This document shows positions 10,001 through 13,055 of a DNA stretch of 64,000 nt, piece by piece. Numbering within the stretch: position 1 is the stretch's first letter; each line of letters begins with the position of its first letter. A model generated the notes under the pieces. That model did no database searches. It had not been told where the DNA came from and saw only the letters and a list, made by a program, of their open reading frames with translations. The stretch is from contig JAGFBZ010000708.1 in assembly GCA_018398805.1 (NCBI GenBank), forward strand, positions 1,054,001-1,118,000, written 5' to 3'. The stretch is from Hirundichthys speculiger (Eukaryota > Chordata > Actinopteri > Beloniformes > Exocoetidae). Both the position numbers and the translations under genes were made by a program.

Positions 10001-10529
10001 CTGCAGCTCCGCAGCGCAGAACAAGGCGGAGAGAAGAAGCGCAGGCATGGGCGGATCTACCGGGGTGGCATAGGGTGGCAAATGCCACCCTAAAATTAAC
10101 CCTTGCCACCCCAGCTGCCACCCCAGTTGGCAGCAATGAATTCAGAGAAAAGTTATGGCCAATTTAACATTTACGAGCCTGAAGCTCCGATGTCCGACTA
10201 CAATGAATGCAGCACAAGAGAACTCGAGAGCGGCACGAGACTCCTTTGAGCCAGGAGTCGTGAGGAAGGGAGACACAGGCAGAAAGAGGTTAAAACTGAT
10301 AAACCATCTATCAAATAATGAAATAATAATGAAATGACTGTCAGGGCATAAAATCGCGACCAACTGGTCGCAAAAAGCGACCCAAATTTAACGATTTCGA
10401 CCGTTTTTTTCTGCCCTGTCGCCAGTGGCGAGGGCCACAAAATCCACCATCAACTTAGGAAAAAAAAAATATTTTTTTTTAATGATTTCTGCACATTTGT
10501 CATGTGTCACCAAGGTAAACATATCTAAA

Positions 10530-11590
10530 TAACTTAACCGCCTAACCCAGTGATGGACAGGTGGACTTTTGCATTCGTCGGTCTTCAGTTTTGTCCATCA
10601 CTGAATCTACTTCACAGCAAAATAGATCATTTTGGTAAATAACCTCATAAAAATACACAACAGAATAGTAAACAGTAGAACCAAGATTCCAAACTTCATT
10701 TTCACCCCATCGCTGCAACAGCGTCAGTGACGCTAACATGTCATTTATAATAGTTGTAACGTGGCTCATTCCTGAATATTTCTGAAATAATAATGATGGA
10801 CACTTGTCAAAATAAGTGTTTAAAATGTATATTTTTGCGAGCTTTTTTTCTACGTGGTAGAACGCTGCGCGCGCTCTCTCTCAGCCACACGAATAAATAC
10901 ATACGTTCATCAACAAACTATAGGAGCTGTATGTTAACGCAAACATGAAAACAACAGCAATCGAATGACAGACTATTTACAATACAAAACAACAGACTTC
11001 AGATGTCAATCACAGATATTTTAATAATTTTGGAAAAACGGATTAACGCTGCGTGCTCCCCCTCACGCACACATGACTCCATTCCCAGCCCTCCTCTCCA
11101 CCGGCGCGGCTCCACCACCGTACAGGTACAGGTGTGCTGTATCACCTGGTCCATCAGGTACATGAACGCATTCACAGGGTCGTCCATGTTGCGGCGCGCG
11201 TATGCAGTTGGACCACCTCTCTCCACCGGGACATTTGTGGACTGGGCTCTCCCGGTCCGCGGTCCCAGCTTTATGGGTCCAAACGGTTCTGTCCTTGGCT
11301 GCCTCATGTAGCTGACATACAGGTTGAGCTCTGATCAATGTAAATATTTATGATTAGATCAGTCAGAGTCGTAGCCTCGCTAAAATACCAAATGATTAAA
11401 ACCAGAGGAAACTAAAACGCTTGACTTCTGAATTTACCTGTCAGAGTATTTCCGTGAGCCTCCACTGTGTCTGAAGACTGAATGTATGTGGTGGTGACCC
11501 CTCACTTATAGAAGCCGGGGCCTTTTTCATAAATTCACCTCCTCATCCTCGGTTGATGTCGTATCACCTGGTAAAAATGACGGGTCACTG

Positions 11591-11627
<37 letters not shown>

Positions 11628-12091
11628 ATTCCTCCTCACTCACATCTGCCGTTATTTCCTCTCTTTCTGACTCAAATCCTGGTACAACAGCCAGACTGTT
11701 GTTTTTGTTGGATTCATGTCTTAAATTTTGCTGTTTGTTTGAAAGATTTAGTGATGACAATAACTGTCTAAGTCCGATAACGCCACAAAGTTTGAGCGTT
11801 GCCAAGCAACGGGCAGTGGGGCGCGGAGGGGCGTGGCGCGCAAAAAATGACAGCTGTTTACAGCGTTTATATGAGGGGGTGAAAATGACCCACCCTCTGC
11901 GGTTCCAGGTATAAATGGTCATATTCATTTTTCTTTTGATCACACACTCACCAGAATTCATTGAATGATTAATAAATCCATTTTAGAAAAAGTCATGAAC
12001 TTACAGATGTAGGGGTTTTATTTTAACAGAAATACAAACATGTGAAAATGCTAGGATGTAAAAATGACCCACTTGGCGGTTCTGGTGTTAA
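10530..12091. mobile_element. Possible piggyBac-like remnant
   Basis: On the minus strand a TTAA (12088-12091) is followed by CCAGAACCGCCAAGTGGGTC. A similar motif GGAACCGCAGAGGGTGGGTC recurs near 11905. GGGTCATTTTTAC-type ends at TTAA are characteristic of piggyBac elements. Minus-strand frames at 11527-11961 (acidic, with SDPSFLPGD) and 10999-11307 (DDPVNAFMYLMDQVIQHT) look like decayed N-terminal transposase pieces, but the resemblance is weak. The left limit is a guess. Confidence 0.35.
11593..11626. repeat. 34-bp uninterrupted poly-C tract
   Basis: A run of C on the plus strand, G on the rarb-sense strand, inside the insertion upstream of rarb2. It can form G-quadruplex structures. It is hard to sequence accurately, so its length may be uncertain. 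Confidence 0.9.
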
Positions 12092-13055
12092 CAAAAAAGA
12101 AATAATATTAGTTTTCATAGTAAGCATCATGGAAACAGAATAAAATGCGCTTTCATGCTTGTAAATGCTTCTGAAATGTAGTGATAGTAGACGATAATAG
12201 GGGTTTTTCATTTATGACAATGCTGCTGGTGCCATATTAACCCCTGACGTATGAGGCGACGAAAAACACTGGCGACCAAAATTGCTAGCTGGTACCAACT
12301 TCAAAAACCTGGTAGCCAGGGGCGACTTGGTAAAAATTCTAATTTTATGCCCTGACTGTGCGAGTTTACTTGTAATGCTGATTTTAAGATGACAAAAATC
12401 AGGTTTAAGAACATTATTATTTCGCCAACTATACATATAATGTTAGCTAGGTCTGACTCATTTGTGTAAAGTAGGCTACAAAACCTAATATTGATTCAAC
12501 GTTTATCAAGGAAAACATTGTAAAGTTACTTTGAATCTTACAGAAATGAAGAGGAAAGGCAGCATATATAGTTTTTTCACACCAAAGAGACAGGCCAGAG
12601 AAATACTAGATGAACTGAACAGTGTAGACCGAGGGGATGAGGTGGAAGTAGAGAGAGAATACCACAAGAAGGAAGGATGTAACATCTCAATTAAGTGAGA
12701 TCACATTTTATGGTCACTTATTCCTAATATTAACTGTTTCACATGAAACCTGTTACCTCAAATACAAGACATTGATTGCATGAGATTAAGTTTGTATGAG
12801 TTCGTAAATGGCACCCCGTGCCCTTATGTAGTGAACCTACAGTATATCTACATGTGGGATTCATGTTCTAAATTATGTATAAAGTCCTGCAAGCAGAAAT
12901 ACTTGAGTGTAAATTATATTGTCTACTATTTCTCATCAAACTGCGATAACTGCCTCAGTATATATACGCCTGCCATATGTTGCCACCCCTCAAAAATCCC
13001 TGCCCCCCTCTTGCCACCCCATAAATATTTTTCTAGATCCGCCCCTGAGCGCAGG

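What the first reader, a model, noticed from the sequence alone, without database searches (positions are those of the whole stretch)
10038..13055. A 3-kb hAT insertion splits the rarb2 promoter at about -145
The 8-bp AGCGCAGG duplication is perfect and the inverted ends are clear, so this is an insertion and not divergence. It sits directly upstream of the CRE-like site and moves all distal promoter sequence 3 kb away. It also brings its own content: a nested element, possible piggyBac piece and a 34-nt G run. It could change retinoic acid responsiveness or be a polymorphic insertion.
Basis: seen in the sequence. Interest (0 to 1): 0.78.

Follow-up and report, generated by a model that had tools for sequence, protein, structure and literature searches.

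The report
Young jumping gene in rarb promoter
A recently arrived 3-kb mobile DNA element, itself one jumping gene sitting inside another, landed about 145 bases upstream of the likely start of a fish retinoic-acid-receptor gene, leaving the core switch intact but separating it from what lies further upstream.

Summary
The insertion is real and young. A 3,002-bp element (10046-13047) sits between perfect AGCGCAGG duplications. Of 18 other single-site copies fetched from this genome, 16 have perfect and 2 one-mismatch 8-bp duplications. It is a two-layer composite: a 984-bp non-autonomous hAT whose right end matches the published Tip100 end at 10 of 11 bases, holding a 2,013-bp element (10342-12354) with 5-bp duplications, the hAT5 signature (17 of 17 stand-alone copies; 6 of 6 outer copies lacking it show one ACTGT). 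The composite then moved as one unit. The window copy has 5 private substitutions in 2,989 sites, about 0.2-0.5 Myr at assumed rates (a tree branch gives up to about 1.1 Myr), so it could be polymorphic; no empty allele was found in the assembly. The gene is a retinoic acid receptor, by recalled first-exon and promoter features rarb isoform 2. Its RARE, TATA-like box and CRE are uninterrupted, and the scan found no direct-repeat RARE or CRE in the element. I expect a modest effect; none was tested. The piggyBac claim found no support.

The parts
10038..10045 (.). Left 8-bp target-site duplication AGCGCAGG (promoter side of rarb)
   Evidence: Read directly; flank 9151-10045 gave one match in the genome, itself
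10046..13047 (+). Whole composite element, 3,002 bp
   Evidence: 20 fetched loci are 97.2-99.3% identical to it over columns aligned without gaps
10046..10059 (+). Left terminal inverted repeat of the outer element (CATGGGCGGATCTA; CAT instead of CAG in 24 of 24 other copies checked)
10046..10341 (+). Left arm of the 984-bp outer (Tip100-like) element, including ACTGT at 10337-10341
   Evidence: 40 matches, 40 of 65 candidates scored, in own genome; outer copies without the nested part
10337..10341 (.). ACTGT, left 5-bp duplication of the nested element
   Evidence: Single uninterrupted ACTGT in 6 of 6 outer copies lacking the nested element
10342..12354 (+). Nested 2,013-bp hAT5-like element, ends CAGGGCATAAAAT ... 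ATTTTATGCCCTG
   Evidence: 17 of 17 stand-alone copies flanked by 5-bp duplications (read by eye)
11593..11626 (+). 34-nt C run (G run in rarb orientation); the longest C run anywhere in the element is 6-67 nt among 21 copies
12355..12359 (.). ACTGT, right 5-bp duplication of the nested element
12355..13047 (+). Right arm of the outer element
   Evidence: 40 matches, 40 of 76 candidates scored, in own genome with query 12364-13047
12549..12695 (+). Remnant of a transposase N-terminal coding exon; in less-deleted relatives the similarity ends at about residue 37-43
   Evidence: 61 matches in own genome, several continuing into longer open frames; three lie upstream of DUF4371 on the same strand. 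The remnant itself has no Pfam match above cut-off
13034..13047 (+). Right terminal inverted repeat (reads CAGGGGCGGATCTA inward)
13048..13055 (.). Right 8-bp target-site duplication AGCGCAGG
   Evidence: flank 13048-13340 gave one match in the genome, itself
9938..9954 (-). DR5 retinoic acid response element GGTTCACAGAAAGTTCA, intact
9993..10000 (-). CRE-like TGATGTCA, intact
9413..9430 (-). Start of the rarb isoform-2 N-terminal coding exon (MFDCMD...)
   Evidence: isoform and subtype recalled (no Pfam or PDB match to this exon); RAR zinc-finger exons downstream on the same strand and contig

Best explanation
A 984-bp non-autonomous Tip100-like hAT element first acquired a 2,013-bp hAT5-like element by transposition (5-bp duplication). 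The 3-kb composite was then mobilised as one unit through the outer ends and reached at least 18 other sites. One recent copy inserted about 144 bp upstream of the likely rarb isoform-2 start, duplicating AGCGCAGG. The steps up to here are shown by sequence, except the clade names and the start position. Inferred: a transposase supplied in trans did it; the core promoter (TATA-like box, RARE, CRE) stays together and should still answer retinoic acid, while regulatory DNA further upstream is moved 3 kb away and may be buffered or silenced, so the effect is more likely modest than abolishing.
For: Perfect duplication and inverted ends. 8-bp duplications at 18 of 18 other single-site composites examined, 16 perfect and 2 with one mismatch. 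The form without the nested part has one ACTGT in 6 of 6, and perfect 8-bp duplications in all 4 whose left end was in the fetched stretch. Nested element alone has 5-bp duplications in 17 of 17. Private substitutions 5 of 2,989. RARE, CRE and TATA-like sequence uninterrupted. No exact DR0-DR8 site and none of the four CRE spellings scanned in the element. RAR zinc-finger exons downstream on the same strand.
Against: No empty site was seen in another individual or species. The transcription start is transferred from recalled mammalian numbering. Two of the 20 fetched copies (L017, L020) are tandemly repeated, lie in repetitive flanks and show no simple duplication. The tree branch of this copy (0.39%) is about twice the private count. 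No immediate transposase source was found; the DUF4371 relatives are 76-89% identical over the matched N-terminal residues. By sequence alone the zinc-finger exons do not single out RAR beta: the best PDB scores were to a longer RAR gamma chain and to RAR alpha. No functional data.
Confidence: 0.88

Rival explanations
1. Functionally neutral insertion: the core promoter is sufficient, and the element is a passenger with no effect on rarb. (This shares the structural account and differs only on effect.)
For: RARE, TATA-like box and CRE are intact and contiguous; the scan found no RARE or CRE in the element; the 480 bp beyond the insertion are AT-rich, GC 0.32.
Against: A 3-kb repeat with a CpG ratio of 0.69 and a long C run close to the CRE could attract silencing or hinder distal enhancers; not tested.
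Confidence: 0.5
2. The insertion is a segregating allele that measurably changes rarb isoform-2 expression.
For: Very young: 5 private substitutions in 2,989 sites; position at about -144.
Against: Single assembly with both flanks matching only themselves, so no second allele seen; no expression data.
Confidence: 0.12
3. Assembly artefact or chimeric join.
For: The element is repetitive and contains a 34-nt C run, a place where assemblies err.
Against: Exact duplication at the ends; five bases of this copy are found in none of the other 20 aligned copies; the same ends and 8-bp duplications recur at 18 other sites.
Confidence: 0.02
4. The inner element contains, or is, a piggyBac relic.
For: Minus-strand open frames and imperfect repeats of AAAATGACCCAC looked suggestive by eye.
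Against: No Pfam transposase match in the frames tried; protein search with one frame gave 2 unnamed short proteins without domains; the inner unit that moves has 5-bp, not TTAA, duplications in 17 of 17. A smaller TTAA-flanked piece inside it was not searched for systematically.
Confidence: 0.08

Closest known systems
Tip100 (hAT superfamily, Ipomoea; used as a transgenesis tool in medaka, PMC12511174, passages seen)
   Same: 8-bp duplications; right end CAGGGGCGGA identical to the first 10 of 11 published terminal bases
   Different: The 984-bp outer element keeps only a remnant of a transposase N-terminus; left end CATGGG instead of CAGGGG; transposase family not tested by phylogeny
hAT5 clade (PMC9004415, passages seen: unusual 5-bp duplications, known from some invertebrates and fish)
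   Same: Nested element has CAGGG ends and 5-bp duplications
   Different: No transposase recognised in the nested element, so clade membership is by signature only
Tol1/Tol2 of medaka (recalled)
   Same: Recently active fish hAT elements that insert in genes and leave 8-bp duplications
   Different: Different ends and, here, a composite non-autonomous unit
Mammalian RARB2 promoter (recalled)
   Same: DR5 RARE, TATA-like box and CRE-like site in the same order and similar spacing
   Different: Here interrupted by a transposon at about -144

Membership tests
hAT superfamily (outer element) | 8-bp target-site duplication | tested here: met
   Window copy perfect; 16 of 18 others perfect, 2 with one mismatch
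hAT superfamily (outer element) | Short terminal inverted repeats beginning CA (feature recalled) | tested here: met
   13 of 14 complementary; left end CATGGGCGGAT in 24 of 24, right end CAGGGGCGGATCTAG in 23 of 24 and with one change in L063
hAT superfamily (outer element) | hAT transposase coding region | tested here: inconclusive
   Only an N-terminal remnant without Pfam match above cut-off. Lists compared by eye: 3 of its 61 genomic matches lie 0.9-3.2 kb upstream of a DUF4371 match on the same strand (150 of 500 DUF4371 candidates scored); none of the 61 lies within 10 kb of a scored PF05699 hit (150 of 2,902 candidates scored)
Tip100 clade | Terminal sequence CAGGGGCGGAG | tested here: met
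   First 10 of 11 identical at the right end; 9 of 11 at the left; a short match, so a lead rather than proof of clade
Tip100 clade | Transposase groups with Tip100 in a tree | not tested
hAT5 clade (nested element) | 5-bp target-site duplication | tested here: met
   17 of 17 stand-alone copies; ACTGT single in 6 of 6 unoccupied outer copies
hAT5 clade (nested element) | hAT5 transposase | not tested
   No transposase match in the inner frames tried; no autonomous partner of the inner element was sought
   No such Pfam match in the frames tried
   Not met for the nested unit as a whole (ACTGT); a smaller internal piece was not searched for
RARB isoform-2 promoter | DR5 RARE and CRE upstream of an exon encoding MFDCMD..., followed by RAR zinc-finger exons | tested here: met
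   RAR membership by search, beta subtype and isoform 2 by recall

The most novel reading that the evidence does not exclude
The insertion is a segregating, very recent allele of rarb that uncouples the retinoic-acid autoinduction core from distal enhancers, giving a natural promoter-separation allele of a developmental receptor; and the composite hAT family is still being mobilised today.
Probability: 0.1. Interest if true: 0.6.

Novelty: new member of a known kind. Interest (0 to 1): 0.36.

Why it matters
It is a clean, recent transposon insertion within about 150 bp of the likely start of a conserved developmental regulator, with the core RARE module left whole. Comparing occupied and empty alleles would test directly how much rarb induction depends on DNA beyond about -144. 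The two-layer element also shows that a 984-bp non-autonomous hAT can carry a 2-kb foreign load and still spread, with each step visible in one genome.

Tried and rejected
piggyBac origin of the inner part: not supported, for lack of a domain match and because of the 5-bp duplications. A stretch of about 115 bp at about 10536 that some nested copies carry and this copy lacks was first thought to be a TTAA insertion; the three examples printed show no TTAA at its edges, so I read it as a deletion in the composite lineage. New RARE or CRE delivered by the element: none found by the exact patterns scanned. A second, empty allele in the assembly: none found. An immediate autonomous parent: not found; only DUF4371 relatives with 76-89% N-terminal identity. 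Species identity: not established; that it is a fish is inference. Literature: searches for RAR beta2 promoter terms (searches gave 0 papers; some searches gave listings of 5 and 1 papers, not read), for rarb loss in teleosts (listing of 5, not read), for hAT promoter insertions in teleosts (listing of 2, not read), and for rarb with transposable element, insertion, promoter, teleost and retinoic acid together (0 papers). Nothing on this insertion was seen in them; mammalian promoter numbers are therefore recalled.

The two dating measures disagree about two-fold: 5 private substitutions of 2,989 (0.17%) against a terminal branch of 0.39% (neighbouring node support 54). The differences from close relatives cluster in the middle blocks, which suggests exchange between copies. 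Substitution rates of 3.5e-9 to 1e-8 per site per year are assumed, not from a call.

Full report
What is there. The window shows AGCGCAGG at 10038-10045 and 13048-13055, directly abutting inverted ends CATGGGCGGATCTA and TAGATCCGCCCCTG. Between them lie 3,002 bp. The 8-mer occurs at one other place on the + strand of the 64 kb (24981). A comparison of the element with the window found no second copy, only a 22-bp internal match.

Genome-wide evidence. A search of the window's own assembly (1.04 Gb, 3,002 contigs) with the element gave 71 matching pieces, 40 of 1,585 candidates being scored; 13 rows, the window included, span essentially the whole query. I fetched 20 loci, not every one in the table (for example C396 was left out). 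All 20 have both ends. Eighteen are single-site copies: 16 have perfect 8-bp duplications, and L010 and L024 have one mismatch. The other two, L017 and L020, are partly tandem repeated, share one left flank and lie in repetitive DNA; they show no simple duplication.

Two layers. Eighteen loci were fetched for the inner part. Seventeen carry it alone, and 17 of 17 are flanked by 5-bp duplications (read by eye; L038 with a one-base shift of the printed boundary). The eighteenth, L046, holds only the right part of the composite and was not counted. Six loci chosen from matches to the right arm proved to be the outer element without the inner part: 6 of 6 show one uninterrupted ACTGT where the window has ACTGT on both sides of the inner element, and all 4 whose left end was in the fetched stretch have perfect 8-bp duplications and lengths of 984, 984, 984 and 992 bp. 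So a 984-bp element received a 2,013-bp element, and the sum then moved as one unit.

Names. The right end CAGGGGCGGAT agrees with the published Tip100 end CAGGGGCGGAG at the first 10 of 11 bases (PMC12511174, passages). A passage in PMC9004415 says that hAT5 is unusual among hAT elements in having 5-bp duplications and is known from some invertebrates and fish, which fits the inner element. Both names rest on ends and duplications, not on a transposase. The outer element keeps a 49-codon remnant (12549-12695) that has no Pfam match above cut-off. It has 61 matches in the genome; in several relatives the similarity ends near residue 37-43 and open frames run on. Comparing lists by eye, three of the 61 (C2039, C259, C110) lie 0.9-3.2 kb upstream of a DUF4371 match on the same strand, and at C2039 the DUF4371 frame is open for 735 aa (150 of 500 candidates scored). 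N-terminal identities there are 76-89%, so these are relatives, not the immediate source. The scored Dimer_Tnp_hAT hits (150 of 2,902 candidates) show a hAT-rich genome, but none lies within 10 kb of any of the 61.

Age. In an alignment of 21 copies, 5 of 2,989 sites of the window copy carry a base seen in no other copy (Poisson interval 0.05-0.39%). Its tree branch is 0.39%. With assumed rates of 3.5e-9 to 1e-8 per site per year the private count gives about 0.17-0.48 Myr (limits 0.05-1.1) and the branch 0.39-1.1 Myr. The longest C run in the element varies from 6 to 67 among the 21 copies, so the 34-nt run is an unstable family feature.

The gene. The minus strand encodes MFDCMDVLAVSPGQ... 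from 9430 downwards. About 29 kb and 74 kb further in the gene's direction, on the same contig and strand, are exons encoding the two halves of a receptor zinc-finger domain; both match zf-C4 and solved RAR chains. In the first of them the stretch PPPRVYK...CEGCK is identical to the RAR beta chain 5uan_B, and RAR gamma (6fx0) differs at two residues there; but 6fx0, a longer chain, gave the best score overall, RAR alpha chains match the same stretch, and for the second exon RAR alpha scored best. So the searches show a RAR; that it is RAR beta, that the first exon is that of isoform 2 (no Pfam or PDB match to it), and that this is a teleost rest on recall and inference. The DR5 element GGTTCACAGAAAGTTCA is at 9954-9938; two exact DR5 sites occur in the window, and the number of hits with up to one mismatch is at chance level, so the identification rests on context as well. 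Setting it at -53 as in mammals (recalled) puts the CRE-like site at -99 and the junction at -144.

How it works. Shown: insertion with an 8-bp duplication of a unit that had earlier received a nested insertion with a 5-bp duplication. Inferred: mobilisation in trans by a DUF4371-type hAT transposase. Inferred: the promoter core stays functional, because RARE, TATA-like box and CRE are contiguous and the element showed no exact direct-repeat RARE (spacing 0-8) and none of the four CRE spellings scanned; distal sequence is displaced by 3 kb. Both flanks match only themselves, so no empty allele was found in the assembly. Polymorphism and any effect on expression remain open.

Verdict. The kind of event, a young hAT insertion in a promoter, is well known.

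Noticed in passing
Window 10046; L009-L028, L061-L064: The left end reads CATGGG instead of CAGGGG as at the right end in 24 of 24 other copies checked, yet the family spread; an altered third terminal base seems tolerated.
   Followed up: yes
Window about 10536; L022, L033-L044: A stretch of about 90-120 bp splits the match in 12 of 17 stand-alone nested copies and, among the 20 composites, only in L022; L022 may show exchange between copies (three examples read).
   Followed up: partly
L021 3282-3544 and L023 3116-3384: Two composites share an extra stretch of about 260 bp that looks by eye like a SINE inserted in the right arm.
   Followed up: no
L017 and L020: Element partly repeated in tandem from element position 1063 within repetitive flanks on two contigs, 98.7% alike.
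   Followed up: partly
Window 11593-11626 and 20 other copies: Longest C run varies from 6 to 67 nt among 21 copies, an unstable homopolymer.
   Followed up: yes
Window 9969-9985: A one-mismatch DR5-like site GGGTCGTTTGAAGGTCA lies just upstream of the main RARE.
   Followed up: no
Window 8622-8706, 25192-25795, 27135-28161: A 42-copy AT repeat and two tandem arrays with steps of about 56 and 51 bp seen in a self-comparison.
   Followed up: no
Window 229-1645 and 48081-49506: A 1.4-kb repeat, 87% identical, within the window; repeats of about 400 bp also recur (6211, 18731, 23772, 55327).
   Followed up: no
G000:C2039:279259-280922: A DUF4371 frame open for 735 aa downstream of a transposase N-terminal exon related to the remnant in this element.
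   Followed up: partly
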